Below, piece by piece: positions 23,670 to 39,541 of a stretch of 64,000 nucleotides of DNA. Position 1 is the stretch's first letter, and the number at the start of each line of letters is the position of its first letter. Under the pieces are notes generated by a model, which saw only the letters and a program-made list of their open reading frames with translations, was not told the origin of the DNA and made no database searches. The stretch comes from Pseudooceanicola sp. HF7 (GTDB taxonomy: Bacteria > Pseudomonadota > Alphaproteobacteria > Rhodobacterales > Rhodobacteraceae). A program made the translations under genes and the position numbers. Location of the stretch: positions 1 through 64,000 of the forward strand of contig NZ_JAATOW010000017.1 of the NCBI RefSeq assembly GCF_011806405.1, given 5' to 3'.

Positions 23670-23745
23670 GCCCCTATAGCTCAGCTGGTAGAGCAACTGA
23701 TTTGTAATCAGTAGGTCCGCGGTTCGAGTCCGTGTGGGGGCACCA
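23670..23745 (+). tRNA. tRNA-Thr (TGT)
   Basis: A complete cloverleaf: acceptor GCCCCTA/TGGGGGC, D-arm GCTCAGCTGGTAGAGC, anticodon arm CTGA-TT-TGT-AA-TCAG, T-arm with GGTTCGAGTCC, and an encoded CCA. The anticodon TGT reads Thr ACA. Its 3' end is the integration target of the adjacent islands and is repeated at 30633 and 39526. Confidence 0.97.
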
Positions 23746-23810: not shown

Positions 23811-23826
23811 TTGGGGTGTGGCAGGG

Positions 23827-25245: not shown

Positions 25246-25269
25246 ACCGTCCGGGATGATTTTGGGGTC

Positions 25270-25387
25270 AAAAATTCGAGACCCCATATTCGATATGGAC
25301 GCGAGCGGTTTCCCCCCCGGTGCCCTCTGACATCTGCGGGGTATCCGCCAGGTGCTGGTGCGAGCGCGGGAGGTGGGGTCTTTTCGA
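25270..25387 (+). other. Conserved structured noncoding block after integrase 1
   Basis: About 118 bp begins with AAAAATTCGAGACCCCA and ends in GGTGGGGTCTTTT. GACCCCA at the 5' side can pair with TGGGGTC at the 3' side, giving a long-range stem followed by T residues. The same block, with internal differences, follows integrase 2 at 32137-32256. It could be an integrase-transcript terminator, a small RNA or a recombination site. Confidence 0.55.
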
Positions 25388-25520
25388 AAGCCAAGCGATT
25401 GCCCCCTTCAGCTTATGAGAGAAGGGGCTGATCCGTTTTTGTTACAGGCACAACCAACGTTGACATTTGCAACGGCTGGGGAATATGGCTGAAGGCAGGC
25501 CAATTGGGAGACCCTGCATC

Positions 25521-26186: not shown

Positions 26187-26331
26187 GAGCGCTACCATGC
26201 AGAGCCCTTCATGCCTTCTATCTGTCTTGTGCCACGATGAAGACAAGCTTCGGACGTGGACGCAGGAGGTGGTTTGAGGGCGGAAGACCAACGAACTGAA
26301 ACTCTTCGACTTCAACAGCAACAACATCCGC

Positions 26332-26637
26332 GTGGTTACCCTGGAGGGTGAGCCGTGGTTCGTGGCGGCTGATGTGTGCCGCGCTCTAGGACTCTCTCAC
26401 ATCACCAACGCCTTGCGTCCTCTGAACACCAAGGAGGTCTCCAACTTTAATCGGATTACGCTTGGCGTGGTCCGCGCAGGGAGGCCGATGAAACTTGTCA
26501 CCGAGAGCGGTCTCTACAAGCTGATCCTGCGGTCGAACAAACCCGAGGCCCGCGCCCTCCAAGAATGGGTGACCAGCACGGTCCTCCCGGCAATCCGCAA
26601 GGATGGCAGCTACATCATGGGTGAGGAGAAGGCTTGA
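26332..26637 (+). CDS. BRO-N domain protein, element 1, with damaged 5' end
   Basis: At least 101 aa match the BRO N-terminal domain found in phage antirepressor-type proteins: VTLEGEPWFVAADVCRALGL, LVTESGLYKLILRSNKPEA and TSTVLPAIRKDGSYIMGEE. Homology extends upstream of the GTG at 26332 as NELKLFDFNSNN in the same frame, but no start codon exists there: the codon expected to be ATG at 26284 reads AAG, and a TGA closes the frame at 26275. The protein is either N-terminally shortened or a decaying gene. Confidence 0.7.
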   Translation: MVTLEGEPWFVAADVCRALGLSHITNALRPLNTKEVSNFNRITLGVVRAGRPMKLVTESGLYKLILRSNKPEARALQEWVTSTVLPAIRKDGSYIMGEEKA

Positions 26638-26667
26638 AGGCCGGTGAGGTTCTGGTAAGTATTTGAA

Positions 26668-26723
26668 GGGAGATGATATTCCCACAAGTGGGACCAACCG
26701 CTCACTGACCGATTTCATCTCCC
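26668..26723 (+). promoter_or_regulatory. Palindromic leader before the 53-aa gene, element 1
   Basis: Outer stem GGGAGATGA (26668-26676) pairs with TCATCTCCC (26715-26723), enclosing a palindrome TCCCACAAGTGGGA (26680-26693). The arrangement is conserved in element 2 at 33747-33802. It could be an operator for the adjacent BRO-N protein or an RNA attenuator. Confidence 0.55.
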
Positions 26724-26755
26724 CCTTCTGACAAGTGACCAAGAAGGGAACGACC

Positions 26756-26917
26756 ATGCTTAAGCACAATTTCGATATCCAGATAGACCCGCGCCTCGAC
26801 GGAGAGCCGCGTTGCTGGGTCATGCGGGCAGACTCCGGGCGCACTGAGGGATGGCATGGCCGGGTCTTGTTCCTCCGTTGGTTCTGGGAGCGCGAGAGCA
26901 AGCCGCTGAGGGGCTAG
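26756..26917 (+). CDS. 53-aa conserved element-core protein, element 1
   Basis: MLKHNFDIQIDPRLDGEPRC... is 53 residues long, and 41 of 53 are identical in the copy at 33836-33997. The ATG at 26756 has AAGGGA seven bases upstream. It contains five tryptophan or phenylalanine pairs such as GWHGRVL and RWF, and ends ERESKPLRG. No known family is recognised. Conservation of protein, leader and position between elements argues it is a real gene with a core function. Confidence 0.72.
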   Translation: MLKHNFDIQIDPRLDGEPRCWVMRADSGRTEGWHGRVLFLRWFWERESKPLRG

Positions 26918-27227
26918 AAAGGGGCCGCTAGCATAGAGGACCCACCGGCACTTGTGCGGGCACTCAGGAGGCTCTCAGCGGCTTCCAGCGGGGCGCTTGG
27001 GTGCCAGTCTTTCGGGGCGCGACAGGTGCTCGGAGCGGAGGCGCAGAGCGGCCTCGGGCTTGAGTTGTACTAGGAGAACCCCATTCGGCCCCCATCAAGG
27101 CTGAAAGTTCGGCTGCCCTTTGTGGGATAAACATATCGCCCTGTGACCCTCATTCCGTGAGGCCAGCGGAGCGAAATGACGCTCTCCATCCGACACGCCA
27201 CCCAGATCAAAATTAAGGAGTCGTCAA
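26918..27227 (+). other. Conserved noncoding block downstream of 53-aa gene, element 1
   Basis: This 310-bp stretch has no gene. It shares pieces with 33998-34350 in element 2: CTTTCGGGGCGCGACAGGTG, an AGAACC...CATTCGG...CCCCAT...GGCTGAAA motif near 27075-27110, and CCAGCGGAGCG before the next gene. GC-rich inverted segments suggest structure. It could be an RNA, an origin or a packaging/transfer site. Confidence 0.5.
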
Positions 27228-27743
27228 TTGGACGATATCACAAAATCGGCCTTGGCCGAAGGAACTTACGTTGCCTACACGGACGGCAGCTGCAAAGGCA
27301 ATCCCGGTCCTGGGGGCGCTGCTTACCGGCTGTATGCTCCCGACGGATCAGACCCCAGCGAGTTTTCCCGCAAGAGCAAACACACCACCAACAACAAGGC
27401 TGAGATGCAGGCAGTAATCGACGCCCTCAAGGCGACCCCAGTGGACGCCTATGTCATGATCTGCCTGGACAGTGAGTACATCAAGAATGGGCTCGAGGAC
27501 TATCTCCCCAAATGGGTCGGCAACGGCTGGAAGACATCCAAAGGCAAGCCAGTGGAGAACCGCGACAGATGGGAGATGATCAAGGCCCTTGTGGATGAGC
27601 GGTTGGTGACCTTCCGCAAGATCAAGGCCCACTCAGGAGACCCGGACAATAACCGCGTGGACCAACTGGCCGGAGAGGCGGCAAATCGAGCGGAGCGGGC
27701 CGCTAAAAAGCACCAGCAGCTGCACAAGGATGCCTCCAAGTGA
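27228..27743 (+). CDS. rnhA: Ribonuclease HI, element 1 cargo (TTG start)
   Basis: This 171-aa RNase HI degrades RNA in RNA:DNA hybrids. The catalytic set is complete: D19 in YTDGSCKGNPGPGG, E59 in NNKAEMQAV, D81 in CLDSEY, H135 in KAHSGD and D145 in NRVDQLA. The start is a TTG at 27228, seven bases after AAGGAG; no ATG is available. Its stop overlaps the GTG start of the next gene, so the two are coupled. A mobile copy, extra to the expected chromosomal one, may act in element replication or in removing R-loops. Confidence 0.93.
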   Translation: MDDITKSALAEGTYVAYTDGSCKGNPGPGGAAYRLYAPDGSDPSEFSRKSKHTTNNKAEMQAVIDALKATPVDAYVMICLDSEYIKNGLEDYLPKWVGNGWKTSKGKPVENRDRWEMIKALVDERLVTFRKIKAHSGDPDNNRVDQLAGEAANRAERAAKKHQQLHKDASK

Positions 27744-28366
27744 GCGCCGCAGAAGTGCCGAGCCAAGATTGCGCAGGGGAGACCCTCTGCGCGACTTGTG
27801 GGGCAGGCTTTGAGAAGACCCGAAAGGACAAGCGGTATTGCTCCAAGGCGTGCGCTCGGGTCGCCAGTAGGAACAATAATCGCGGACCCCGCCAGATCGA
27901 AGACAAGGAGCGGGCAAGGTGGCACTACGGACGGGCTGCATGGCTCCTACATGACTTATATCGGCTACCGAAGCGTGAGCAGCGTCGTATGGGGCAGGCC
28001 ATCCTGGAAGCCGCATCTGGACCCGATCCCGCTCTGAGGAACATCCTCACCGACCCCGCTCTACTCGGGGCACCCTATGGGTCAACAAAGGGCTTGCTGG
28101 AAACAGACCATGGAAAACCAAACATCGCCAAGTTCATGAATACGTTCTGCCGGGAGGAGTACGGAACAAGCATCCGAGATACGATCCTAGATGAGGGCAA
28201 ACCGGCTTGGCGGACGTTCACGACAGGAGAGCCTCTCTGCATTTCGAAAGTCCCTCCGCACATACATGAGAAGACCCCTGAGGTACTTGAGAGGATCACC
28301 ATAGCCGAGCTTCGTCAGCGTTTCCCAATGGGCAGGACGCAGGAACAGAGGCAATACGCTGCCTAG
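27740..28366 (+). CDS. Zinc-ribbon protein coupled to RNase HI, element 1
   Basis: This 208-aa protein begins with a GTG overlapping the RNase HI stop (GTGA). A treble-clef type motif CATCGAGFEKTRKDKRYC followed by SKAC gives four cysteines that could bind zinc (residues about 17-40). The rest is charged, without a recognised domain. Translational coupling suggests it works with RNase HI on nucleic acid. The last 40 codons overlap one copy of a 28-bp direct repeat. Confidence 0.72.
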   Translation: MSAAEVPSQDCAGETLCATCGAGFEKTRKDKRYCSKACARVASRNNNRGPRQIEDKERARWHYGRAAWLLHDLYRLPKREQRRMGQAILEAASGPDPALRNILTDPALLGAPYGSTKGLLETDHGKPNIAKFMNTFCREEYGTSIRDTILDEGKPAWRTFTTGEPLCISKVPPHIHEKTPEVLERITIAELRQRFPMGRTQEQRQYAA

Positions 28367-28396
28367 CGTTCGAAAGTCCCTCCGCACATATATGAG
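28243..28396 (+). repeat. 28-bp direct repeat pair around the zinc-ribbon gene end
   Basis: TTCGAAAGTCCCTCCGCACA plus eight more bases at 28243-28270 recurs at 28369-28396 with one mismatch. The second copy begins two bases after the stop codon. This suggests a local duplication or a boundary where cargo was inserted. Confidence 0.7.
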
Positions 28397-28971
28397 TAAC
28401 CATCAAGGTAGCCCGTGGGGCTGATATAAGACCCTGTATGGTTCCTCTAGGGTGGCCTGTAGGATGATGACTGATCAGATCTATCCATAGATCGTCACCC
28501 CTACGGGTGCCCCTAGGGTATCATAAACAAGGAGAGGGTCTAACTGCTCATTGCAGCATCCGGTCAGTCACCTGGCAGGTGGGCACCTTAAGCATATCCG
28601 CGCTCGGCGCAGCATTGTACCCGGCAGGGTCGGAGAGGGCGGAGAGCTGCCGTTCGCTGCGGGGGGCACAGACGGCAGCAGTGCGCAGATAGCGAGCGGT
28701 CGATTTTTGACTAATTTGCGCAGCACAGCGTCGAAACGGGTGGCTCCGCAGAAGGCCAGAAGGGCCTCTTAGTGTAGGGTGCTGCAAGTTATCTTCACTA
28801 CTCGGGACAGCCCCGATAACGACCAATGGGGCAAAGTCTGCCTCGATGTTCTGACAACCATGTGACTCCTGGGCCCGTCCAGATTTTTGCAAACATGCAT
28901 AAATTTGAGATCTTCGAGCAACTGATAAAGTTTTTCTTCTCAGTGGAGCGAAGCTAGGCGATGATCGTTTC
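28397..28971. other. Noncoding stretch, element 1
   Basis: No convincing gene. It contains small inverted repeats around 28495-28520 (CCCCTACGGGTGCCCCTAGG) and a GC-rich part (28600-28780) that looks like chromosomal intergenic DNA, followed by an abrupt fall in GC before the two-TM gene. Confidence 0.4.
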
Positions 28972-29616
28972 ATGAAAAAAATATTCTTCGTCATAAACCG
29001 CCTCGTTGACGGCTTCGGCTATTGGTATGGGGCGTACCTTTTACTTGCAGGGTCGTCAATTCTCGGGATTCTATCTGCTTACTCATCGAAGGGGGTTGCG
29101 TGGATTGCAAAATTTGGTCTGTTCGGATTGCTTTTCTCAGGATTCGCTGGGGCATTGCTTTTTTCGATTATTTTGATTGCCCTAAGCGGAGTTTACTTTA
29201 TTTGGATCAAGGCCAGTATCGCGCGGGCATACTCTAAAAACATAACGGAATTCAATCCGCTTGACAGAATAATTGACAATAAGAGATTTCGGATTCAGGA
29301 TTTAGTAAGCCCAATTGACAGGAGAATAAATAGGAAAAGGATTTCAAACTGTGAACTTCTTGGGCCGGCGAATATTTACATGCATAAATCGGTTGAATTT
29401 GTTGGAAATGAATTCTTTGAATGCATCTTCATAATGCTTCGTCCTATCGAAGGTGGGATTGTAAACACCGGACACGCCATCATCTTGGATGATGTGGTAA
29501 TTCGCGAATCAAAGATCTATGGAGCTACGATCATGGTTCCGCCGGCACTGGTGCCGATGCTGCTTGAGGCTGGCGCAACTTTTGCCACACTCATCGAAGG
29601 TGATATCCCAAAGTGA
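28972..29616 (+). CDS. Two-TM protein with C-terminal beta-rich domain, cargo of element 1
   Basis: This 214-aa protein is encoded by DNA visibly richer in A+T than the host. Two hydrophobic segments (about 20-40 and 46-76) are followed by a charged linker and a beta-rich C-terminal half (SNCELLGPANIYMHKSVEFV ... ILDDVVIRESKIYGATIMV). No family is recognised. Its place beside the right attachment site matches that of the candidate defence gene in element 2. A membrane-acting defence or exclusion factor is possible but unproven. Confidence 0.65.
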   Translation: MKKIFFVINRLVDGFGYWYGAYLLLAGSSILGILSAYSSKGVAWIAKFGLFGLLFSGFAGALLFSIILIALSGVYFIWIKASIARAYSKNITEFNPLDRIIDNKRFRIQDLVSPIDRRINRKRISNCELLGPANIYMHKSVEFVGNEFFECIFIMLRPIEGGIVNTGHAIILDDVVIRESKIYGATIMVPPALVPMLLEAGATFATLIEGDIPK

Positions 29617-30092
29617 TCTATGTCAAGATTCTATCCGGGCCACATCACCACTCAACCCAACCGGTGAATGCAAGTGATTTCAATTCCCGTTCTGATCCCT
29701 TGCCCTCACCATACTGATCGACAACTGCAATGAGTTTCAGACTTCCAGAACCAAATCTTCAGGGCCATGACCTGCTTCCTTAGGCAATGCTTCCGTCAGT
29801 AGGAATGGGCCACCTCTCGCTCAGGACAAAGCCGTCAGACCTTGACTCATTAGAGAACAGAATGAGCTGAGACCGGTCATCCGCTGCGCCCGGCATGGAG
29901 GTCTGCAAGGGGCCGACTTCGACTTCGCGGCCTATTTTCGGAATCGAGACGCTGGGTGTCAGTGTCGCTCTGTGGAGCAATGAAGGCCAGGACCTGAACT
30001 ACATTTTTCATAGCCCTGTTAATCAATCAATAACCACTACTTGCACAAGCTTTTCGAGGCACGAAGGACCGCCCACTAAACTGATCAAACCA
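29617..30092. other. Noncoding stretch near right end of element 1
   Basis: This 476-bp stretch shows no supported gene; short open frames on either strand lack ribosome-binding sites and recognisable domains. Confidence 0.4.
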
Positions 30093-30218
30093 ATGAAACC
30101 AGCAAATGATAATCAGCCACCCCGGCTTTGGCCGAAGCTGCTCGACGCGGCGATGCTTTTGCTCGGGTGGCTGATATTTCTCGCGCCAGTTTGGTTTGTC
30201 GTGCGGGGCTTTCTGTAA
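30093..30218 (+). CDS. Possible 41-aa single-TM peptide
   Basis: MKPANDNQPPRLWPKLLDAA is followed by one hydrophobic helix (MLLLGWLIFLAPVWFVV) and RGFL. The N-terminal PANDNQPP resembles other tiny alphaproteobacterial proteins, but no good ribosome-binding site is visible. Confidence 0.35.
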   Translation: MKPANDNQPPRLWPKLLDAAMLLLGWLIFLAPVWFVVRGFL

Positions 30219-30632
30219 GTCCTCCCAGCAGGTCTACCAGAAGCGAAATGAGATAGCGCTCTGTAAGATACGCCTCCACATCCAGCCGAACAAAGCGCTT
30301 GATTGATTATCGCCTTGCGCAGTTCAAATGTCTGGAACGGGCCGGAAGCAGCTAGGTTCCGGCGAGACACTGATCGTCCGCTCAGGGCCCGGATAGTCGA
30401 CTGATATAGGGCGAGCGGAGGCTTGGGCTCTGCATTCTCTTCCTGAGGTTTGCTGCCGACCAGCCGCTCCCGGATTTCTGTGCACCTCCTGCAATTTCTT
30501 GCCTCTGCAGTTTGTTCGTCGCTGTTCGCTTCCCAGCGTCTTCTGCCAAGTAAGCCGAAACCACTACACAAGCACTACACATCCATGGTGCGTTGTGGTC
30601 TTAATGCCTTGGAATGTATCGGGAAAAATTGA
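30219..30632. other. Right-end noncoding region of element 1
   Basis: No gene is supported. It carries the paired CTACACA motifs at 30564-30581 and then the attachment repeat. The region is an expected location for integrase binding. Confidence 0.45.
30564..30581 (+). repeat. Paired CTACACA motifs near right end of element 1 (putative arm sites)
   Basis: CTACACA at 30564-30570 and 30575-30581 have the same 11-bp spacing and a similar distance (about 50 bp) from the att core as the left pair at 23793-23810. Confidence 0.6.
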
Positions 30633-30661
30633 GGTTCGAGTCCGTGTGGGGGCACCAGAAA
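30633..30661 (+). repeat. Central attachment site (junction of elements 1 and 2)
   Basis: An exact 29-bp copy of the tRNA-Thr 3' end. It is only a tRNA fragment: the rest of the cloverleaf is missing upstream. It serves as the right end of element 1 and the left end of element 2. Confidence 0.9.
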
Positions 30662-30714
30662 AATCACCTAACACATTGATTTTATTGGTGAGAAGCCCTC
30701 GGGCTTGCCTGTGT

Positions 30715-30735
30715 GTATCCATGTCCGTATCCATG
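30715..30735 (+). repeat. Paired GTATCCATG motifs near left end of element 2 (putative arm sites)
   Basis: GTATCCATG at 30715-30723 and 30727-30735, spaced 12 bp. A further copy is at 39446-39454 near the other end of element 2. The second copy overlaps a possible integrase start codon (ATG at 30733), which would allow autoregulation. Confidence 0.55.
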
Positions 30736-30744
30736 CGGGGACAT

Positions 30745-32106
30745 ATGGACATGCAGAATGTGACAGTGGAATATCTCAAGCAAGACCCCCGAAATGGTCG
30801 CTGGCTCTATCGCCGGGTGGTCCCGAAAGCCCTAAAACCGTGGGTCCAACAGCGCGAGTTTGTGAAAACCCTTGGGAAGACCCGTCAGGAAGCCCTGATC
30901 CAATACGGCCCGTACCATCAGCGCATCGAGCATATGAAATCCCTCGCACAGGCCGGTGTTGCAGGGCTTTCACCAGCGACGCAGCGCGACAAGCTCAAAG
31001 CGATGCTCGAAGTATGGGGTGCAGACCCTCACAGCGCTGGGCGAGATGACAATGAGCGAACATGGCGTGAAGTAGCGGCAGGCGAGATCATCGACCGCTA
31101 TCAGAACCCCGCGACAGGTGAGTATGAGGGGGTGCCGGAGGAAGAAGCGCTTAGAGCCGGGGCGCTCCTGTCCGGTGTGCCAAAGCAGACCCCAGAGCCG
31201 ACAATCACAGACGCCTTCAATTTCTATCTCAAAGAGAATGCGAAGGACACGCCCGAGAAGCGGAAGAAGCAGGAGCAGCGTTTCCGGCGGGTGGAGCGCA
31301 GCCTGATCGCGGTGATTGGTGAAGACAAGCGGGTCTCTGAGATAACCCGAGAAGAGGCCCGCAAATGGCGCGACATGCGGAGCGAGGCAGGCGCAGCACC
31401 CGGAACAATCAAGCGCGAGAAGTCCGACATAAGCACTGTGATCAACACCGCGCGAAGTGAACTGGATGCAGGAGATGCGAACCCCTTCGAGAAGCTGAAA
31501 CTACCCAAGTCGAAAGTCAGCCGCCGCGAGGAGCGGGAAGCGCTGCCCGAAGAAGTCATCCAAGGCGTGTACAGCAGCCTAGAGGGAGGCCGAAACAAGG
31601 TCCTTTTGGCTATCTGGACGCTCATAGACTTTATCGGGGCGCGTCCCAGCGAAATAAGAGAGTTGAACCGAAATGAGGTCATCTTGGATCATGCGATCCC
31701 ACACCTTGTCCTTACGGAGAGGGAGGGGCGCTCCCTGAAAACCGCATGGTCAACACGGAAAGTGCCGCTCGTGGGCAGGGCACTGGATGTTGCCAAAGAA
31801 CTACTAGACGAAGCCACGGACGGCTCAGCGCCGCTTTTCCCCCACTACTGCCGCGAGGGCGGGATGGATAACCTGTCGCAAGCCCTGAACCGGCGTATCA
31901 GGAAGTTTTCGACAAACCGAAAACACGTCACCTACAGCCTGCGGCACAACATGTCCGACCGGTTGCGGCGGGCTGAGGTCCATGACGCGACACAGCGGGC
32001 CATTGAGGGCCACTCCTACGGGCGAGGCGAGGCTGCGTCCTACGGCGGTGATATCCCACTAGAGAAGAAGCGAGACGCGCTTATCAAGGCCCTGGGCTTG
32101 GACTAG
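30745..32106 (+). CDS. Tyrosine-type site-specific integrase of element 2
   Basis: This integrase (about 453 aa from the ATG at 30745; ATGs at 30733 and 30751 are alternatives) has an N-terminal phage-integrase-like domain with DPRNGRWLYRRVVPKALKPW, a core-binding domain (about 150-240) and a catalytic domain. Catalytic residues appear complete: Arg in GARPSEIREL, Lys in LKTAWSTRKVPL, YSLRHN box, GHSYG and Tyr in ASYGGD. It directly follows the central attachment site and should be the active enzyme of the tandem. Confidence 0.92.
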   Translation: MDMQNVTVEYLKQDPRNGRWLYRRVVPKALKPWVQQREFVKTLGKTRQEALIQYGPYHQRIEHMKSLAQAGVAGLSPATQRDKLKAMLEVWGADPHSAGRDDNERTWREVAAGEIIDRYQNPATGEYEGVPEEEALRAGALLSGVPKQTPEPTITDAFNFYLKENAKDTPEKRKKQEQRFRRVERSLIAVIGEDKRVSEITREEARKWRDMRSEAGAAPGTIKREKSDISTVINTARSELDAGDANPFEKLKLPKSKVSRREEREALPEEVIQGVYSSLEGGRNKVLLAIWTLIDFIGARPSEIRELNRNEVILDHAIPHLVLTEREGRSLKTAWSTRKVPLVGRALDVAKELLDEATDGSAPLFPHYCREGGMDNLSQALNRRIRKFSTNRKHVTYSLRHNMSDRLRRAEVHDATQRAIEGHSYGRGEAASYGGDIPLEKKRDALIKALGLD

Positions 32107-32136
32107 CAGCTTCGTAGATCGCCCTGATTTTGGCCC

Positions 32137-32256
32137 AAAAATTCGAGACCCCACATTGGATAAGGGCGCGAGCGGGTTTCCCCCCCGGTGCCCCCTCTGT
32201 CCCTGCGGGATACCCGAGAGGTGCCCGCGCGAGAGCAGGAGGCGGGGGCTTTTCCA
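32137..32256 (+). other. Conserved structured noncoding block after integrase 2
   Basis: Counterpart of 25270-25387: it begins AAAAATTCGAGACCCCA, shares GGGCGCGAGCGG and TTTCCCCCCCGGTGCCC, includes a CGGGATACCCG mini-hairpin and ends GGGGGCTTTT. The conserved ends and variable middle suggest a folded RNA or terminator. Confidence 0.55.
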
Positions 32257-32316
32257 CGAGCAGTGCAGGCACCCCCCACTAGAAACGGACAGGCGGGGGG
32301 GGTCCGAAAGAACATG

Positions 32317-32413
32317 TGTCCGCAAGGGTATACTTAAACGGACATGTGAGAAGGTGCCCGACATGGCGTCCATAAGGGTTGAATGCATCAACGGACACAT
32401 CTATCAACGGACA
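32317..32413 (+). promoter_or_regulatory. Putative res site of the element 2 serine recombinase
   Basis: A 28-bp inverted repeat TGTCCG-N16-CGGACA (32317-32344) with a central TA resembles a resolvase crossover subsite. Two further CGGACA half-sites (32392-32397 and 32408-32413), one with a weaker partner near 32367, follow before the gene at 32442. The layout of one palindrome plus accessory sites is typical of Tn3-type res regions. Confidence 0.6.
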
Positions 32414-32441
32414 TGACCCCTAACGACACCCCGGAGGCAAC

Positions 32442-33077
32442 ATGTCCAAGACCATCCTGTATGCCCGCGTATCAACAGCGGACCAGACCCTAGAGCACCA
32501 GAAGACCCAAGCGGAGGCCGCAGGCTTTGCGGTTGATGCGGTTGTCTCAGATCACGGGGTATCAGGTGTCAGCACCCGCCTGCGGGATCGCCCCGAGGGC
32601 AAAAGGCTGTTCGACATGCTCCGGAGCGGGGATACCCTTGTGGTGCGCTGGGTGGACCGCCTGGGCCGCAACTACCAAGACGTTACCGACACCATCCGCG
32701 AGTTGATGCGACAAGGCGTGGTCATTCGGACAGTGATCAACAACATGACATTCGACGGGGCCACCACGGACCCCATGCAGGAGGCCGTGAGAGACGCGCT
32801 GATCGCCTTCATGGCGGCAACGGCTCAGGCACAGGCAGAAGCCACGAAGGAAGCCCAGAAGGCCGGAATAGAGGCCGCAAGGGCCGACAAGACCCGATAC
32901 CGAGGCAAGAAGCCCAGCTATGACCGCAAAGCCTTCGAGATGGTGCAGAACATGTCAGCGCAGAACGCAGGGACCAGCGAAGTTGCCAAGGCCACGGGCC
33001 TCACCCGCCAAGCCGTGATCCGCATTCGGAAAGACCCAGCAGCAGCAGAGGCAGCATTGACGCGCTGGGGGATGTGA
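32442..33077 (+). CDS. Serine recombinase (TnpR/Hin-type resolvase), element 2
   Basis: This 211-aa protein has catalytic Ser11 in YARVST, the LVVRWVDRLGRNYQDVTDTI active-site helix, a long E-helix (AFMAATAQAQAEATKEAQKA) and a C-terminal helix-turn-helix (GTSEVAKATGLTRQAVIRIR). A GGAGG ribosome-binding site precedes the ATG at 32442, and a probable res site lies just upstream. It is likely to resolve multimers or tandem copies. Confidence 0.92.
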   Translation: MSKTILYARVSTADQTLEHQKTQAEAAGFAVDAVVSDHGVSGVSTRLRDRPEGKRLFDMLRSGDTLVVRWVDRLGRNYQDVTDTIRELMRQGVVIRTVINNMTFDGATTDPMQEAVRDALIAFMAATAQAQAEATKEAQKAGIEAARADKTRYRGKKPSYDRKAFEMVQNMSAQNAGTSEVAKATGLTRQAVIRIRKDPAAAEAALTRWGM

Positions 33078-33104
33078 AGTGAAGGGGCGTTGCGAAATGG
33101 CAAC

Positions 33105-33734
33105 ATGCGCGTCTGCTATCTGTCTTTGCGGCTCATAAGCAGGAAAAGCATCCGCGTGGTTACCCTGGAGGGTGAGCCGTGGTTCGCCGCGAAGGACGCA
33201 TGTGACCTTATGGGGATCGGGAACTCCAGGGAGGCCACCAAGCGCCTGAGTGCCTCTCAGTCCCGTCTCATCAAGAAGTCAGACGTCAGCTCGCTTGACG
33301 TTACCTTTCCGAACCGAGGGCTGGTCTTCGTCAGCGAGAGCGGCCTCTATGCGCTGATCCTGCGCTCCGACAAACCCGAGGCGCTGGACTTCCAAGACTG
33401 GGTAACCCGCACGGTTCTCCCGGCAATCCGCAAGGATGGCAGCTACGTCATGGGCGAGGAGAAGTCTTGCAAGGTACTCGGCCTGAAGAGCGTCTCGACG
33501 TCCCTGAATAATCTCCAAACTTTGGAGGTTAAACGACAGAAGCTGACCACGGGGCGTGGTGCCTCCAGCAAGCTGATCAACGAGAGCGGTCTCTACAAGC
33601 TGATCATGCGCTCCAATAAGTCCGAAGCAGAAGCCTTCCAGAACTGGGTGACCGGCACTGTCCTCCCGGCAATCCGCAAGGATGGCAGCTACGTCATGGG
33701 CGAGGAGAAGTCTTGCAGGGCGCTAGGGCTGTGA
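33105..33734 (+). CDS. BRO-N domain protein with internal duplication, element 2
   Basis: About 209 aa from the ATG at 33105 (a TTG at 33090 and a GTG near 33156 are alternatives). BRO-N motifs are VVTLEGEPWFAAKDACDLMG, VSESGLYALILRSDKPEA and RTVLPAIRKDGSYVMGEEKS. The second half of the domain is repeated (INESGLYKLIMRSNKSEA ... GTVLPAIRKDGSYVMGEEKS), a tandem duplication with a period of about 240 bp. The usual BRO N-terminus is replaced by MRVCYLSLRLISRKS. A 38-bp stretch (33149-33186) is identical to 26325-26362. Confidence 0.75.
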   Translation: MRVCYLSLRLISRKSIRVVTLEGEPWFAAKDACDLMGIGNSREATKRLSASQSRLIKKSDVSSLDVTFPNRGLVFVSESGLYALILRSDKPEALDFQDWVTRTVLPAIRKDGSYVMGEEKSCKVLGLKSVSTSLNNLQTLEVKRQKLTTGRGASSKLINESGLYKLIMRSNKSEAEAFQNWVTGTVLPAIRKDGSYVMGEEKSCRALGL

Positions 33735-33746
33735 TAAGCATCTGAA

Positions 33747-33802
33747 GGGAAATGATATTCCCACTTGTGGGTTCAACCAGTGACCGGCTGACTTCATCTC
33801 CC
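33747..33802 (+). promoter_or_regulatory. Palindromic leader before the 53-aa gene, element 2
   Basis: GGGAAATGA (33747-33755) and TCATCTCCC (33794-33802) flank the palindrome TCCCACTTGTGGG (33759-33771). The inner palindrome keeps its arms relative to element 1 while its two central bases differ, as expected of a protein-binding site. Confidence 0.55.
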
Positions 33803-33835
33803 CCCTTCTGAAAATTGACCAAGAAGGGAAAGACC

Positions 33836-33997
33836 ATGCTCAAGCACAATTTCGATATCCAGGTTGATCCGGGCCTTGCCGGAGAGCCGCGTTTCTGGGC
33901 CATGCGAGTAGACCCCGGACAAACTGACGGGTGGCATGGCCGGGTTTTGTGCTTCCGTTGGTTCTTGGAGCGCGAGAGCAAGCCGCTGAGAGGCTAG
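33836..33997 (+). CDS. 53-aa conserved element-core protein, element 2
   Basis: MLKHNFDIQVDPGLAGEPRF..., same length as the element 1 copy and differing at 12 of 53 positions, many of them conservative. Invariant parts include HNFDIQ, GWHGRVL, RWF and ERESKPLRG. A GAAGGGA ribosome-binding site precedes the ATG at 33836. Function is unknown. Confidence 0.72.
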   Translation: MLKHNFDIQVDPGLAGEPRFWAMRVDPGQTDGWHGRVLCFRWFLERESKPLRG

Positions 33998-34411
33998 AAG
34001 GGGTCGCTAGGGGTCCACAGGGCCACCGGGCACCTTGCGGGAATTCAGGAGGGTTCTCGGGGGCTTCCTGCCGGGTATCGGATGCCCACCTTTCGGGGTG
34101 CGACAGGTGCCCCCGACAGCAGGCGTAGGGCGGTCAAGGGATGGGTTGCTCTAAGAGAACCGACCATGCGGACCCCATGAGGGCTGAAACTGGGTTGCTC
34201 TAAGAGAACCGACCATTCGGACCCCATGTGGGCTGAAACTGGGCTGCTCCAGAAGGACGAACCGGTCCGCCCTGTGGCCCCCATAAACCGTGGCCAGCGG
34301 AGCGCATCGCCGCTCCCCATCCGACACCCTCAAACCAAAGCTAACGGAGCCACCCCCAAGCAAGTGCATGGGGGAGAGTTCTCCGTGCCCTCTGTAAATA
34401 ATGGACTCAAC
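33998..34411 (+). other. Conserved noncoding block with repeats, element 2
   Basis: This 414-bp stretch has no gene. Shared with element 1 are the CTTTCGGGGTGCGACAGGTG segment and the CCAGCGGAGCG piece before the following gene. It contains the 49-bp tandem repeat at 34142-34239. Confidence 0.5.
34142..34239 (+). repeat. 49-bp tandem repeat, two copies plus a degenerate third
   Basis: Units at 34142-34190 and 34191-34239 begin TGGGTTGCTCTAAGAGAACC and differ at two bases. A degenerate third copy starts at 34240 (TGGGCTGCTCCAGAAGGACG). A single related copy exists in element 1 near 27062-27118. Confidence 0.85.
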
Positions 34412-35014
34412 ATGCAGAACATGACCCCCCGCATGGCGGCTGACGCCATCATTTCCACTCGTTTTTACAGCCCCTACGGAGTCTCGACCCTATCCGAATA
34501 CTGGGACTTTGTACTCCGTAGAGCCACGGCACACCTTGCCGAACACCTTGCCCGCAGAGTCGCCGGGACGTCCGGCAAGCAACGTCGAGAAGCCCGGCTG
34601 TTTTTCGATGACGATGACACCCTCTGCATCAGCATTCAGATGACAGACGCGCGTACTGGTGAAGCTGTCGAAGCCGTGACGGAGTTCAGGGTTTTTTTGG
34701 ATATTTTGGAAACCGGCGCAGACGGCGCATGGCAATACGGCAACAAGGAAGGTGATCGAAAAAGGGGGCAAGTCCGCATCGGAGTTCCCATGAGTGAAAG
34801 ATCACGGAAAGTGCCGGTCGGACGAATTATCGCGAACGCCACGAAAGGCCAACAGGCCCGCATGGAGGACGGAAATCCCCTCAACCTGCGCCGGGCGAAC
34901 GTCTACTTGGTCGGCAAGCCCAGAGGCTGCGACACGCGCAGTGAATTACAGGAAAAGGCCCGCTTTCGGGCAGACCTCGCCGGGTCTGAATTCGACTATC
35001 CCGAGCGCGACTGA
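34412..35014 (+). CDS. Degenerate HNH/AP2-like protein, element 2
   Basis: About 200 aa beginning MQNMTPRMAADAIISTRFYS. Near the C-terminus, VGRIIANATKGQQARMEDGN followed by PLNLRRANVYLV matches the phage HNH endonuclease pattern RxIxNAPKGxxVDHxxGNxLDNRRxNLR. The catalytic Asp-His pair is replaced here by Ala-Arg-Met, so nuclease activity is unlikely and DNA binding more plausible. The start is uncertain; an upstream in-frame open region to 34226 includes repeats. It lies 29 bp before the ParB-like gene, probably co-transcribed. Confidence 0.68.
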   Translation: MQNMTPRMAADAIISTRFYSPYGVSTLSEYWDFVLRRATAHLAEHLARRVAGTSGKQRREARLFFDDDDTLCISIQMTDARTGEAVEAVTEFRVFLDILETGADGAWQYGNKEGDRKRGQVRIGVPMSERSRKVPVGRIIANATKGQQARMEDGNPLNLRRANVYLVGKPRGCDTRSELQEKARFRADLAGSEFDYPERD

Positions 35015-35043
35015 GCGTAGAAAACCCCAAAGGAAGCCCAAAC

Positions 35044-35889
35044 ATGACCACGAAACGCACGTGCAAGGAGCGCGGGCGGAAAACCCCCGTTCGCCTTGAC
35101 CAGATCGACCTTGAGAGCGAGGCGGGAACGGCCCGCCCCGGCCCCCTCGACAAGGAGTGGGTCAAAGACCTCGCCCGGACCAAATGCATCGTCGGACAGC
35201 TTGACCCCATCCTGCTGTGGCGCAATCCGCGAGACCCCGAAGGCCTCCTGATCATCCTTGATGGACGCCACAGGGTCGCCGCCTATCGCTCCGAGAAGGG
35301 AGCCAAGAAGATACCCGCAAGGGTCCTGGAATGCTCATTCCGGGATGCCCTCCTTGTCTCTGCCCAAGAGCATACCAATGCCTCACTTCCTTTGACGTCA
35401 AATCAGAGGGCCGACTTCGCTTGGCGGCTGGTCTGGGAAAACCTCGACTATTCCAAGAAGGAGCTTTCGCAGGCCACCGGTGTGTCGCCGCGAACTGTTG
35501 GTTACATGCGGGCTCGCTTCAAGGAGATGCAGGCGGCGGATACCGAGATCACGGGCCGCTGGTGGCAGGACAGAAAGGCAAAGCCCGAAGGAGACGAAGA
35601 GCAGCCAATGATGAGCGATGCAGAGAGGCGAGAGGCCGTAGAAGCCATGTCGAAGGCCCTTCGGGAAGTCACAGACCGACGCGACAACCCGCTGCCTTTC
35701 TGGGACGATGAACTGACGGCGGAAGCTATGGGCATCGCATTCGGAGAACGGAAGCTCCGCTACTTCATGGAGTACTCATTCGGTGGGATGGACGATGAAA
35801 TGGAAGAGTGGGGCGAAAGCAGGGTCGGACAGTATCCCGACGAAGACCCCCATGCAGAGCCCGAAGAGGGGCCATGTGGAGACTTCTGA
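35044..35889 (+). CDS. ParB-like N-terminal domain protein, element 2
   Basis: This 281-aa protein has a ParB/Srx-type N-terminal domain: LDKEWVKDLARTKCIVGQLD, LLIILDGRHRVAAYRSEKGA (the GRHR box corresponds to the CTP/phosphate-binding motif of ParB). A helix-turn-helix follows (YSKKELSQATGVSPRTVGYM). The C-terminal 90 residues are acidic and unfamiliar. No ParA is adjacent, so a DNA-binding regulator or CTP-dependent clamp is more likely than plasmid-style partition. Confidence 0.8.
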   Translation: MTTKRTCKERGRKTPVRLDQIDLESEAGTARPGPLDKEWVKDLARTKCIVGQLDPILLWRNPRDPEGLLIILDGRHRVAAYRSEKGAKKIPARVLECSFRDALLVSAQEHTNASLPLTSNQRADFAWRLVWENLDYSKKELSQATGVSPRTVGYMRARFKEMQAADTEITGRWWQDRKAKPEGDEEQPMMSDAERREAVEAMSKALREVTDRRDNPLPFWDDELTAEAMGIAFGERKLRYFMEYSFGGMDDEMEEWGESRVGQYPDEDPHAEPEEGPCGDF

Positions 35890-36382
35890 GAAGCCCTAGG
35901 GGGTGCAAGCAGTAGACTGTGCAAATTGCACACCCTGAGACACAGGAGGGGGCGGCTGTAGGTCGCCCTTTTCCAACCCGACAGGGCGGAGCTTGCAGGC
36001 ATGGCGTCGAACATGGATGCCTAGAGACCTCGGCGGGGGAGCGCCAGGGGGACGGTGACACCCACCCGGCGCGTCGCGCAGGAACGGCCCGTTGCGGACT
36101 TTCGTGTTAGGCGCTGCGGATGACCCATCCAAAGCGCGAAGCGGTCCTTCTACACAGTCACACCGATGCATCACTTCAGCTTCATGAGGCCTTTCATCTG
36201 ATTGTCCATCTGGCTAGCGCTGGTTTCTCAAGCGAGAGCATACAACCGCTCCGTAGGCACTGCCCACAGAACAGGATGCAAAAGAGGGAACCTAGGGGGC
36301 TATCGTAACACAAAACTTTGCAAAGCCGACTGAAGCGGGCCACTATCTTACCCACAGTGCAGAGAATCGGCGGTTTCAAGAG
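35890..36382. other. Noncoding junction between core-like genes and cargo, element 2
   Basis: This 493-bp stretch holds a terminator-like hairpin near its start and no convincing gene; a 62-codon open frame at 36120-36308 lacks a ribosome-binding site. Base composition drops in G+C towards the cargo gene. Confidence 0.4.
35950..35972 (+). terminator. Probable terminator after ParB-like gene
   Basis: GGGCG (35950-35954) and CGCCC (35964-35968) are followed by TTTT, about 60 bp after the ParB-like stop codon. Confidence 0.6.
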
Positions 36383-39004
36383 ATGAAGAGCGAAAGTGAT
36401 GTCGAGCAGAAAGTCATTCTGCCGCTTCTAAAAGATGCAGCGCCCCAGGGTTTAGGGATTCCAGACAGCTGGATATCAACAAAAGTAAGCATCAAGAGCA
36501 TCACAATAGACAAGGGTAAATCAAAAAAGAACTATTTCCCTGACTTTGTGGTCTCTGTCTATGGCCTCCCCGTCCTAATTGTTGAAGCAAAGGCTCCAGG
36601 TGAAGATCTCGTAGAGGCACTTCGAGAAGCTCGCCTGTATGCGGCTGAAGTCAACGCGGGCTACGGCCCTGATGTTGACCCAGTAAAATTTGTCATAGCC
36701 TGTGACGGAAATAGAATTCTTGCAGGTTGGTCCAACAGCGCCAGTCCAGATTTCGATATAAAGTCAGAGAGGTGGACGCCGACGGATACTGAATATTCAC
36801 TTTTTTCTGAAAAATACTCGTCCGACAAGCTCGCCTCCTGGGCATTGGAGGTCCTGAAGGAACTTCGTCCACGAAGGTACTGGAAACCTCGTAAACTGGT
36901 AGGCGGAATCGCAGCGCAAGAGGAGGAAGTTGGGCTAAACTCTTTTGGAGTAACTATTAAGTCTGATTTTCGCGAGCTTTTCAATCCGGAGACCATAGAT
37001 GAAAGGGATGTTATTGCGCGCGAATGCTACATCCCTTCGCGGCGTCGGGAGAGGTATGTTGATTCCATTGACAGAACATTCAAAGCCATTATTCCACCAT
37101 CCGAGAAGAATGCAAAGGCAATAGATGACACGTCAAGTCCAGATGAGATTATCGAAAAACTCAAGTACGGGCAGAGACTCAAAAATCAAGTTATGCTTCT
37201 TATTGGAGCGGCTGGCGCAGGTAAAACAACGTTCGTTGATCATCTTAGGGTAAAAGCGCTACCGAGCGACCTCCGAGAAGGCACTCACTGGGTTCACATC
37301 AATATGAACGTTGCTCCAGTTGGCCGTGATGAAATTTACCCTTGGCTTCGGAAAGAAATTCAGCGCGGCGCAGAGAGCGCCTTCCCAGATGTAAATTTCA
37401 AGAACATTCGAACGATCAGGAAGATCTTCCGAAGGAAGATATCGGAGTTCAATGAGGGAGTGGGCAGTCTATATCAAGGAAGTGGAGAAAAATATAACGA
37501 GAAGCTTGCTGATTATATTTCTGAGTTCCTAAAGGATGATCACTTTGTCGCTCAATCGTACTGCAGTTATGTCTCGAGCAGAAAGTCCGGATTAGTTGTA
37601 ATAGCCCTAGACAATTGCGATAAGAGATCAATGGATGAGCAGCTATTGATGTTTGAGGCAGCGCAGTGGATTAGAAATGAATTTGACGCCATGGTCTTCT
37701 TACCGCTAAGAGAGGAGACCTACGACAACAACCTAGGCCTTCCGCCGCTCGATACGGCGCTTAAAGATATGTCGTTCAGAATTGAGCCTCCGAGGTTTGA
37801 CCTCATTCTTCGCTCTCGTGTTGATTTGGCGATTTCGAAACTCGAAGAGGACCCTGATCGAAAATTCTCGTATGATCTACCAAACGCGATGAAGGTATCA
37901 TACACATCAGAAGATAAAGCATACTACTTAACGTCCATTTTACGATCTATTTTCGACACTGACGCATCTGTTCGCCGGCTATTGATTGGCCTTTCAGGGC
38001 GAAATATGCGAAGAGCGATGGAGATATTTTTGGATTTCTGCTCAAGTGGGCACATATCTGAAGATGAGATTGTGAAAATCGTTCAATCAAGAGGTGAATA
38101 CGCCCTCCCAATGTCTATGGTTAGCCGAGTCATTCTTCGACCCAAGAAGCGATATTATGATAGCGACACCTCATACGTGGTAAATCTTTTCTCCGCTGAT
38201 ATTGACGATCCTCGACCAAACTTCTTCGTGAGAGTGGGCATATTAAGATACCTGAGAAGCTTGGGGGAAATTGGAAAGGGAAGTCGGCTTTCCAAGTATG
38301 CTCGGGCAATGGATATCTATGATGCGCTTCGGCCAATGGGTCTCGAAGAAAAAGCATTCACGCGAGAGTTGAACTACCTTGTGCGTAGCCATTGTGTTGT
38401 AAGTGAAGACTTCAGAATGTCCGACGTTTCGTTGGATGATCTCGTCACCATCGGACCTGCTGGCCGAACTCATATATATCTTATGGGAAACATTCAGTAT
38501 ATTTCCGCTGTCTCTGAGGACACGTGGTTTCGGGATCAAAGTCTTGCCAGGTCTATATCGGATAGAATTCGAAATCATGCGTCGCAGTTCTCAAATCGTA
38601 CCGTCGTTCAGAATGCTGGTGCAGTTGCCGATTTTCTTCGGGCGCAGTCAGAGGAGGTGTTGGATAGGATAGAGCTTGTTCACAAGGATAGCTCCCTTTC
38701 AGATTTGATATCCACGAGCAACTTGCACGCAGTGGTTGACCGTAAAGAGAGAGAGCACCTTGGCGCATGGGCAGGTGTCGAGGTTAGGTTTTTGGCTGGA
38801 AATGTGTATGACGGCTTAGTGGTAGGCATTAAGAATTTTGGTGTTTTCGTTCAGCTTGAGAATGGCGTTGACGGGATGATTCATGTTTCAAATCTACTGG
38901 GTCGCCCAAGTGACTTTACCAGAGGTGATGTCGTAAGCGTAAAAATTGAGAAAGTTGATGTCTTAGGGAAGAAAATCGACCTGGCACTCCATTCAAATAG
39001 TTGA
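36383..39004 (+). CDS. HsdR-type nuclease / P-loop NTPase / S1 domain fusion, candidate defence protein
   Basis: This 873-aa protein is encoded by DNA clearly richer in A+T than the host. Residues 1-95 form a type I restriction R-subunit-like (PD-(D/E)XK) domain: PD at 53-54, E68-A-K70 in LIVEAKAPG, and a helix ending LYA. Residues 265-450 hold a P-loop NTPase, with Walker A GAAGAGKT (275-282) and Walker B LVVIALDN (404-411), in a STAND/KAP-like context. A long helical middle follows. The C-terminal 80 residues are an S1 RNA-binding domain (VVGIKNFGVFVQLENGVDGM). Single-gene NTPase-nuclease fusions at island ends are typical of abortive-infection systems such as Avs, but the S1 end is unusual. 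Confidence 0.8.
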   Translation: MKSESDVEQKVILPLLKDAAPQGLGIPDSWISTKVSIKSITIDKGKSKKNYFPDFVVSVYGLPVLIVEAKAPGEDLVEALREARLYAAEVNAGYGPDVDPVKFVIACDGNRILAGWSNSASPDFDIKSERWTPTDTEYSLFSEKYSSDKLASWALEVLKELRPRRYWKPRKLVGGIAAQEEEVGLNSFGVTIKSDFRELFNPETIDERDVIARECYIPSRRRERYVDSIDRTFKAIIPPSEKNAKAIDDTSSPDEIIEKLKYGQRLKNQVMLLIGAAGAGKTTFVDHLRVKALPSDLREGTHWVHINMNVAPVGRDEIYPWLRKEIQRGAESAFPDVNFKNIRTIRKIFRRKISEFNEGVGSLYQGSGEKYNEKLADYISEFLKDDHFVAQSYCSYVSSRKSGLVVIALDNCDKRSMDEQLLMFEAAQWIRNEFDAMVFLPLREETYDNNLGLPPLDTALKDMSFRIEPPRFDLILRSRVDLAISKLEEDPDRKFSYDLPNAMKVSYTSEDKAYYLTSILRSIFDTDASVRRLLIGLSGRNMRRAMEIFLDFCSSGHISEDEIVKIVQSRGEYALPMSMVSRVILRPKKRYYDSDTSYVVNLFSADIDDPRPNFFVRVGILRYLRSLGEIGKGSRLSKYARAMDIYDALRPMGLEEKAFTRELNYLVRSHCVVSEDFRMSDVSLDDLVTIGPAGRTHIYLMGNIQYISAVSEDTWFRDQSLARSISDRIRNHASQFSNRTVVQNAGAVADFLRAQSEEVLDRIELVHKDSSLSDLISTSNLHAVVDRKEREHLGAWAGVEVRFLAGNVYDGLVVGIKNFGVFVQLENGVDGMIHVSNLLGRPSDFTRGDVVSVKIEKVDVLGKKIDLALHSNS

Positions 39005-39525
39005 ATCATGGCGCCTATTGCGAGGCACGGCCCCGGTTACCAACCTTCCGCTTTCAGAAGTTGGCTCCAAGTTCATGTTCTCGTTAGTCGTGAATTCGTT
39101 GGATGCCGCACATAAGCTGGGTCGTTTTCGAACGAGTGCCCAAGTTGCGCTGCAGACGTCGAGCCGCTTCGGAGACTAAGGCCGGGGCGCCAGTTCCGAT
39201 CCGTGCCCTGCGGTCGTTCGTCTAAGACGCAGCGAAAGCCCGCTCCCCGCCCTTGGTGTCGATCGAGCGGGCGCCGGTCTTGGTTCTCGTCCGAATGTCC
39301 GCTTCCGTGGTGCGGCTTGGGCGCCTTCGCGACTGCGGCGAAGGACCGCTTCCCGCCCTTCGGCGAACTTGCGGCACGTACCATGCTGGCCATCCGGGTA
39401 TAGGAAGCACGAGCGCTCTCGGACCGATATGTAAGCTTGAGGTTTGTATCCATGTTTCACTACACATTCGGCTGTGTTGGTGGTAATTATCCAAGGAATT
39501 CATTGGGATGTGGATACGCATCACG
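39005..39525. other. Right-end noncoding region of element 2
   Basis: No supported gene. It includes GC-rich, chromosome-like sequence (39180-39400) and then an AT-richer end carrying GTATCCATG (39446-39454) and a single CTACACA (39460-39466), likely integrase binding sites. Confidence 0.45.
39446..39466 (+). repeat. Right-end arm-type motifs of element 2
   Basis: GTATCCATG (39446-39454) matches the pair at the left end of element 2. CTACACA (39460-39466) matches the motif found at both ends of element 1. Both lie about 60-80 bp inside the attachment core. Confidence 0.5.
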
Positions 39526-39541
39526 CCGTGTGGGGGCACCA
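39526..39541 (+). repeat. Right attachment site of the tandem island
   Basis: CCGTGTGGGGGCACCA is identical to the last 16 bases of tRNA-Thr including CCA. It marks the outer boundary with chromosomal DNA. Confidence 0.85.

What the first reader, a model, noticed from the sequence alone, without database searches (positions are those of the whole stretch)
36383..39004. Single-gene fusion of HsdR/PD-(D/E)XK nuclease, P-loop NTPase and S1 RNA-binding domain
Sequence shows PD53-54/E68-x-K70, Walker A 275-282, Walker B 404-411 and a C-terminal S1 domain, in AT-rich cargo beside an attachment site. Nuclease-NTPase fusions in such positions are often abortive-infection sensors (Avs, for example), but an S1 domain as sensor end is unusual and could detect phage RNA or translation factors. 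Defence function is inference.
Basis: partly seen in the sequence, partly recalled or inferred. Interest (0 to 1): 0.82.

Follow-up and report, generated by a model that had tools for sequence, protein, structure and literature searches.

The report
Phage-borne nuclease-ATPase with RNA-binding tail
A single gene on a mobile island encodes what looks like a DNA-cutting domain, an ATP-driven switch and an RNA-binding tail, and many of its relatives sit in the spots where bacterial viruses keep genes against rival viruses, so it is probably an unstudied one-gene antiviral system.

Summary
ORF 36383-39004 (+), 873 aa, has an HsdR-type PD-(D/E)XK nuclease domain, a P-loop NTPase with a winged-helix-like end, and a C-terminal S1 domain. 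The named catalytic residues are invariant in the window protein and all 24 viral-contig homologues (25 of 25). A 17-sequence AlphaFold model is confident (pLDDT 83).

The new evidence is positional. Of the 24 IMG/VR contigs, 11 are P2-like with the gene at the gpA-portal (gpQ) hotspot, the published old/tin slot. Five have it directly downstream of a CI-like repressor, where lambda carries rexAB (recalled). One is a Zot-carrying phage with an integrase; another shares its integrase. Each set is one clade, so this means a few captures, not 24. The window copy ends a tRNA-Thr island.

Distant relatives carry cold-shock domains instead of S1, so the OB-fold tail looks exchangeable.

Best reading: one-gene phage exclusion by an NTP-gated nuclease with an RNA/ssDNA-sensing tail. 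It works like Avs but is not filed as one (no TPR found, no PADLOC Avs match). Function is inferred; my searches found no experimental report.

The parts
36383..39004 (+). Whole gene: nuclease - NTPase - S1 protein, 873 aa
   Evidence: homologues over most or all of the length
36383..36730 (+). Residues 1-116: PD-(D/E)XK nuclease domain of HsdR type (E4/E8, PD53-54, E68-x-K70, Y86)
   Evidence: Pfam HSDR_N, HsdR structures, invariance
37133..37792 (+). Residues 251-470: P-loop NTPase core, Walker A 275-282, Walker B 404-411, R443
   Evidence: fold neighbours Orc/Cdc6, RFC, RdrA, MalT, NB-ARC
38303..38572 (+). Residues 641-730: winged-helix-like end of the NTPase module with G694 and H697 (the domain call is an inference from the model and the Orc/Cdc6 matches)
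38789..38992 (+). Residues 803-870: S1 OB-fold domain
   Evidence: Pfam 1e-11, ribosomal protein S1
30658..39541 (.). Second tandem integrative element (about 8.9 kb) that carries the gene as its last gene found
   Evidence: tRNA-Thr 3'-end repeats at 30633-30661 and 39526-39541, lower GC
23670..23745 (+). tRNA-Thr(TGT), the integration target
30633..30661 (+). Attachment-site copy between the two elements
   Evidence: 29 of 29 nt identical to 23721-23749
39526..39541 (+). Right attachment-site copy, 16 nt
   Evidence: sequence read
30760..32106 (+). Tyrosine integrase of the element (start codon not settled)
   Evidence: Pfam Phage_integrase, below cut-off (20.6 of 27.1 bits)
32442..33077 (+). 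Serine resolvase
   Evidence: Pfam Resolvase 2.6e-28
33090..33734 (+). Bro-N antirepressor-like protein
   Evidence: Pfam Bro-N 3.7e-37, two stretches
34226..35014 (+). 262-aa protein, no family found
35044..35889 (+). ParB-like 281-aa protein (weak)
   Evidence: NCBIfam parB_part, 25.3 bits, below cut-off 58.45

Best explanation
It is a one-gene phage-exclusion (probably abortive-infection) protein that travels on temperate phages, plasmids and integrative islands. Proposed steps: (1) the protein is made in the uninfected carrier, as its slot next to CI in prophages suggests; (2) the C-terminal S1 OB-fold binds RNA or single-stranded DNA that appears or changes during infection; (3) the central Orc/STAND-like NTPase binds ATP and oligomerises; (4) the N-terminal HsdR-type PD-(D/E)XK domain then cuts DNA, stopping the incoming phage, probably with the host. 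Shown here by sequence, model or position: the domains, the invariant catalytic residues, the largely conserved OB surface, and the recurrent location in exclusion-gene slots. Inferred: defence activity, the trigger, ATP-driven assembly, DNA as substrate, cell death.
For: Active-site residues of both enzymes are invariant in 25 of 25. HSDR_N is found in 25 of 25 and S1 in 21 of 25 at E <= 0.01. The nuclease aligns to EcoR124I HsdR at the D...E-x-K residues. The model has mean pLDDT 83.2 and pTM 0.75; its 50 listed PDB neighbours include Orc/Cdc6, RFC, RdrA of the RADAR defence system, MalT and an NB-ARC domain, and ribosomal protein S1 for the tail. Position: 11 of 24 viral contigs are P2-like with the gene at the gpA-portal hotspot (9 have gpA upstream, 10 have the portal downstream, 8 have both) and 5 of 24 have a CI-like repressor 57-493 bp upstream on the same strand. 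In 4 of 4 E. coli loci read (of 109 genomes carrying it among 5,426) it sits in the same P2 hotspot, beside a gene identical in protein to one in L047 that matches the PADLOC candidate PDC-S49. In E. coli this hotspot holds old and tin and other tested antiphage genes (PMC9122126, section 10). The P2 and CI sets are well-separated clades, so at least two kinds of phage hold it in such a slot by separate descent. The S1 domain and the linker before it vary most (mean pairwise identity 32% and 22%, nuclease 53%), as expected of a sensing end.
Against: I found no test of function. The P2 hotspot also holds non-defence cargo (partition genes, a toxin), and of eight further systems cloned there three protected (PMC9122126, section 10). 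8 of 24 viral contigs (L031-L033, L039-L043) are in neither named slot; of these L031 and L032 are of the Zot/integrase type and L039 lies beside an integrase. S1 was not detected in 4 of 25; L041 clearly lacks the tail, so the core may work without it. L002 lies on a Rhizobium sp. R635 contig with ordinary-looking neighbours. Fold matches of the NTPase have low whole-length TM (0.14-0.22) and no STAND Pfam model passes its cut-off in the window protein, so 'STAND' is not proven. Nothing shows RNA binding or that S1 triggers the enzyme. In E. coli 2 of the 40 listed copies are annotated as split in two.
Confidence: 0.55

Rival explanations
1. The S1 domain aims rather than senses: the protein is tethered to transcripts or to transcribed DNA (R-loops, ribosome-bound mRNA) and the PD-(D/E)XK domain cuts RNA or DNA there, so no separate activation signal is needed.
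For: S1 and cold-shock domains are general RNA/ssDNA binders (recalled) and are exchanged on the same core. CoCoNuT systems are predicted to target RNA, in part because of OB-folds (PMC11090510, passages).
Against: The fully conserved NTPase residues and an Orc/STAND-like fold suggest a gated switch. HsdR-type PD-(D/E)XK domains cut DNA (established for type I enzymes; recalled).
Confidence: 0.2
2. A stand-alone restriction enzyme (type IV-like, or an orphan HsdR) that recognises modified or unmodified phage DNA and cuts it without a sensor for infection.
For: HSDR_N passes its Pfam cut-off and the nuclease profile matches solved HsdR. One distant plasmid relative is annotated 'Predicted type IV restriction endonuclease'.
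Against: No helicase family was found in the protein and no modification or specificity family in the element's genes scanned. An S1 tail is not known in such enzymes (recalled).
Confidence: 0.1
3. A maintenance, replication or lysogeny factor of mobile elements (Orc/Cdc6-like ATPase with nucleic-acid-binding tail), not a defence protein.
For: Orc/Cdc6 and RFC are among the best fold matches. On two plasmids it lies near replication or partition genes.
Against: It sits in optional cargo slots of phages that carry their own replication genes, it is rare (a full-length match only in the own genome among 390 genomes of the order and 398 of the phylum), and it keeps an intact nuclease site.
Confidence: 0.07

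Closest known systems
Avs / AVAST (antiviral STAND NTPases with an N-terminal nuclease or other effector)
   Same: One protein with N-terminal PD-(D/E)XK-type effector, central P-loop NTPase and C-terminal recognition-like end; mobile, patchy distribution
   Different: C-terminal S1 OB-fold and no TPR found; HsdR-type nuclease; no PADLOC Avs match for the window protein or three S1-type relatives; STAND Pfam models below cut-off
P2 old/tin and other gpA-gpQ hotspot systems (PMC9122126)
   Same: Same genomic slot in 11 viral contigs and in the 4 E. coli loci read
   Different: No Toprim family (a mark of OLD, recalled) among the Pfam hits. The main text seen (section 10 and passages) does not name this architecture; its supplementary table S5B could not be opened
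Lambda rexAB and BstA (exclusion genes beside the prophage repressor)
   Same: Gene on the same strand just downstream of a CI-like repressor in 5 contigs; the slot comparison is recalled
   Different: No such family appears among the family hits; no direct comparison was made
CoCoNuT / McrBC type IV systems with OB-folds (PMC11090510, passages)
   Same: Nuclease plus NTPase plus OB-fold domains (cold-shock type there)
   Different: One gene; no McrB or McrC family among the hits; different nuclease family and domain order
Ternary conflict systems with S1-like or cold-shock domains (PMC7159879, PMC8195603, passages)
   Same: OB-fold S1/CSD domains used in predicted counter-invader systems
   Different: There they are parts of multi-gene NTPase systems; the passages seen do not describe a fusion to an HsdR-type nuclease and NTPase in one chain

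Membership tests
Avs / AVAST | N-terminal effector domain such as a nuclease | tested here: met
   HSDR_N over cut-off; HsdR structures
Avs / AVAST | STAND-type central NTPase | tested here: inconclusive
   P-loop with Walker A/B and a winged-helix-like end; fold neighbours Orc/Cdc6, RFC, MalT, NB-ARC; STAND Pfam models under cut-off
Avs / AVAST | C-terminal TPR-like sensor | tested here: not met
   Pfam finds S1 at 805-868 and no TPR at E up to 1; the model ends in an OB-fold
Avs / AVAST | Match to an Avs profile | tested here: not met
   PADLOC: window protein has two weak Walker A-region hits, neither Avs; relatives L051, L037, L031 have weak or no hits, none Avs
Type I restriction HsdR | HsdR PD-(D/E)XK domain | tested here: met
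Type I restriction HsdR | SF2 helicase motor and HsdM/HsdS partners | tested here: not met
   No helicase family in the protein; no methylase or specificity family in the six element proteins scanned
P2 hotspot antiphage systems | Between gpA and gpQ of a P2-like phage | tested here: met
   Met for homologues: 8 contigs show both flanking genes, 3 more one of them; not for the window copy itself, which is in a tRNA island
P2 hotspot antiphage systems | Measured protection against phages | not testable with these tools
   Needs plaque assays
CoCoNuT / McrBC | McrB GTPase and McrC nuclease | tested here: not met
   No such family among the Pfam and NCBIfam hits (NCBIfam showed the best 25 of 33)

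The most novel reading that the evidence does not exclude
One nuclease-NTPase core with exchangeable OB-fold tails (S1 in one branch, two cold-shock domains in another, none in a third) forms a family of nucleic-acid-sensing immune switches, in which the tail reads phage RNA or ssDNA as NLR-like proteins read phage proteins.
Probability: 0.35. Interest if true: 0.78.

Novelty: new variant of a known kind. Interest (0 to 1): 0.62.

Why it matters
Known Avs-type proteins recognise phage proteins (large terminase, portal; as summarised in PMC12724215, passages). A one-gene system of similar plan with an RNA-binding end would make a direct test possible of whether bacteria also use NTPase switches that read foreign nucleic acid in the way animal RNA sensors do. 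A homologue is already in 109 of 5,426 complete E. [quoted passage not shown]

Tried and rejected
Avs membership: rejected because the TPR and profile tests were not met. Orphan type I HsdR: not favoured because no helicase and no HsdM/HsdS family was found. A profile search with the full-length alignment A3 over 385 genomes of the class rang in 355, but in the rows listed (the output was cut) all but the own gene cover only the S1 end, in frames of 276-700 codons, which I take to be mostly ribosomal protein S1; it says only that the window gene is the one full-length match listed. The first viral-contig scan with the single protein found no relative; scans with alignments found 24 loci, and a scan with the cold-shock-type alignment A4 found 2 more (L104, L105) that I did not study. 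The phages collection gave only S1-region matches for the window protein and none for two relatives. A megablast of L035 in E. coli found nothing, while a distant search with the P2-type gene found 109 genomes. Empty site: matches to the right flank lay in other places, and no tRNA-Thr was found in the 7 loci read around them (ARAGORN reported one doubtful tmRNA), so no clean empty site was shown. The same tRNA-Thr locus has at least two attachment copies within about 45 kb in 4 of the 17 other same-genus genomes searched (G767, G769, G771, G774; the listing was cut); of the 13 window proteins compared, only the flanking permease is encoded in the 7 pieces fetched there (for the larger intervals only end pieces were read). 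Gifsy GiPD474 was checked in print and is described as a ParA-like ATPase (PMC12724215, passages). [quoted passage not shown] it was not compared.

Novelty searches: in the open PMC library, plus PADLOC, Pfam and NCBIfam. Papers: PMC9122126 section 10 and passages; PMC11090510, PMC8195603, PMC7159879, PMC12839542, PMC12724215 and PMC8713573 passages only; others only as search listings. Table S5B of PMC9122126, which may list the E. coli gene, could not be opened (no supplement look-ups allowed).

Full report
What is there. The ORF at 36383-39004 (+) encodes 873 aa. Pfam finds HSDR_N at residues 47-110 and S1 at 805-868, both over the curated cut-offs; the P-loop region at 268-339 is found only by sub-threshold AAA and STAND models. 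A profile of 17 nuclease domains (A6) hits HsdR of EcoR124I (4beb E 0.001; 2w00 E 0.0016) with D54 and E68-x-K70 on the HsdR D...E-x-K. A profile of the middle part (A5) finds only weak P-loop matches in the PDB by sequence (best E 0.005).

Structure. With 17 sequences (window protein plus 16 search for related loci proteins) AlphaFold2 gives mean pLDDT 83.2 and pTM 0.75; the stretches under 50 are 222-241 and 631-636. Foldseek against the PDB (50 of 1,253 matches listed): Orc/Cdc6 and RFC AAA+ proteins, RdrA (E 1.1e-4), MalT and NRC1 NB-ARC for the NTPase part, all with low whole-length TM (0.14-0.22), and ribosomal protein S1 domains for the tail (rmsd 1.8-2.9 A over 82-87 columns). Among the 50 listed matches in the viral library are S1 proteins and clamp loaders, none of them showing this whole architecture. 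I read this as an Orc/STAND-like NTPase with a winged-helix-like end between a nuclease and an OB-fold; that it is a true STAND is not proven.

Conservation. The nuclease and NTPase residues listed in the observation check are invariant in 17 of 17 and in 25 of 25 (window plus all 24 viral homologues). Pfam finds HSDR_N in 25 of 25 and S1 in 21 of 25 at E <= 0.01 (the call does not name the four without; L041 has no tail). Mean pairwise identity in the 17-row alignment is 53% (nuclease), 48% (NTPase), 32% (S1) and 22% (the linker before S1). The OB surface is largely kept in those 17: position 819 is F/Y in 16, 822 is F in 16, and 834 is H in 10, K/R in 5, Y in 1 and S in 1 (that these match the RNA-binding positions of S1 domains is recalled). 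L043 is the outlier in all three.

Relatives. S1-type relatives outside viruses: Palleronia pontilimi (61%), Rhizobium sp. R635 (45%), a Gemmataceae MAG (36%), a Paraburkholderia megaplasmid (37%) and a Desulfocapsa plasmid (35-36%), all five with S1 by Pfam. A Phaeobacter plasmid protein (26%) has nuclease and NTPase hits but no S1. Among 390 genomes of the order and 398 of the phylum 4 each have any match at E <= 1e-10, the own genome included; the others are 21-27% identical over part of the protein. Eleven more distant relatives (19-26% over the NTPase) include three with two cold-shock domain stretches at the C-terminus (L019, L011, L021) and eight with neither S1 nor CSD found by Pfam (two of these are short). 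The core is thus shared and the OB-fold tail differs between branches.

Viral contigs. Alignment-based scans of IMG/VR found 14 and then 23 loci, 24 different in all (L031-L054). Neighbours were clustered by BLASTP and typed by PHROGs in part. P2-like: 11 of 24 (L034, L045-L054). The upstream gene is gpA-like (phrog_91, checked in L034 and L051), the downstream gene the portal (phrog_68, checked in the same two), with terminase and scaffold in L051; by cluster, gpA is upstream in 9, the portal downstream in 10 and both in 8; L047, L050 and L053 show one of the two, at contig ends. This is the gpA-gpQ hotspot that holds old and tin in P2; of eight further systems cloned from it in E. coli three protected, and a prophage-borne one (AC1) too (PMC9122126, section 10). 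CI side: 5 of 24 (L035-L038, L044) have a CI-like repressor (phrog_4, checked in all 5) upstream on the same strand at 469, 493, 57, 88 and 96 bp, counted to the first start codon; L035 also has antirepressor, O-like replication, NinB, NinG and RecE genes. Lambda keeps rexAB in this slot (recalled). L031 encodes a Zot-like protein and an integrase; L032 shares its integrase and one more gene family, and a Zot was not looked for there. L039 has an integrase 42 bp upstream. The rest (L033, L040-L043) lie in other places: L042 near a tape-measure gene, L043 near a holin, and L040, L041 and L033 near genes I did not place.

Tree. In a tree of 31 proteins the 11 P2 copies form one clade (100/100), the 5 CI-side copies one clade (100/100), and L031/L032 are sister to the P2 clade; the window copy groups with Palleronia (100/100) and then Rhizobium (100/98). 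So the counts above stand for few captures: P2-like and CI-side copies are separate; the Zot/integrase copies may have been exchanged with the P2 line.

E. coli. 109 of 5,426 complete genomes carry a gene 82% identical in DNA to the L051 gene, all on chromosomes and at least 99% identical to the copy of L106. Four loci were read (of 109): the same order each time, replication endonuclease, the gene, a P-loop NTPase gene, portal, then a truncated terminase next to ybjL. This looks like one remnant prophage inherited in a lineage. The viral contig L047 encodes identical proteins for both genes (883 of 883 and 614 of 614), so it is not independent of this lineage. Two of the 40 listed copies are annotated in two pieces. 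The neighbouring NTPase matches PADLOC PDC-S49 at 7e-28 (tested as L047).

Window context. tRNA-Thr (23670-23745) and copies of its 3' end at 30633-30661 and 39526-39541 bound two tandem elements. Each has related integrase and resolvase genes and Bro-N-like sequence, and they share repeats at 61-90% identity, but their cargo differs. The gene is the last one found in the second element. The same tRNA locus has repeated attachment copies in 4 of the 17 other same-genus genomes searched.

Counter-evidence. L002 is in a region of ordinary genes (moaA-like, FGGY kinase, ABC ATPase); a whole-genome integrase search gave three matches in that genome, one below cut-off, and says nothing about this spot. 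The gene is rare in the genomes sampled. Part of the family lacks a detectable S1. I found no measured activity.

Mechanism and verdict. The slots argue strongly for exclusion of rival phages; I put defence of some kind at about 0.85. The specific chain (OB-tail senses nucleic acid, NTPase assembles, nuclease cuts DNA, cell or phage stops) is the best fit, 0.55. It works like Avs but fails two of the features tested, so it is best called a new variant of the nuclease-NTPase kind. In the searches named under Tried and rejected I found no paper on it; the library holds only open papers, and a supplementary table that may list it was out of reach.

Noticed in passing
window 23746-30657 and 30658-39541: Two tandem, related integrative elements at one tRNA-Thr with different cargo; the first carries an RNase H-like protein (27228-27743, family recalled from its sequence), a 208-aa and a 214-aa protein of unknown function, none matching PADLOC at E <= 0.01.
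   Followed up: partly
window 23787-23811, 30558-30582 and 39458-39467: Short repeats (CACTACACA core) beside each attachment copy, possibly integrase or excisionase arm sites.
   Followed up: no
window 34142-34239: Two 49-nt tandem copies, 96% alike, just upstream of and reaching into the 262-aa ORF.
   Followed up: no
L047:12030-13874; E. coli WP_023147874.1 in L106: A second gene beside the homologue in the P2 hotspot matches the phage defence candidate PDC-S49 (7e-28); the pair may be two systems or one.
   Followed up: partly
L019, L011, L021: Relatives of the same core with two cold-shock domain stretches at the C-terminus instead of S1; two viral contigs of this type (L104, L105) were not studied.
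   Followed up: partly
L106-L109 (E. coli): A P2 prophage remnant with a truncated terminase and late gene that has kept the nuclease gene and its neighbour in the four loci read.
   Followed up: partly
tRNA-Thr locus of G767, G769, G771, G774: The same tRNA-Thr is a recurrent insertion site in the genus; the pieces read encode none of this window's element proteins.
   Followed up: partly
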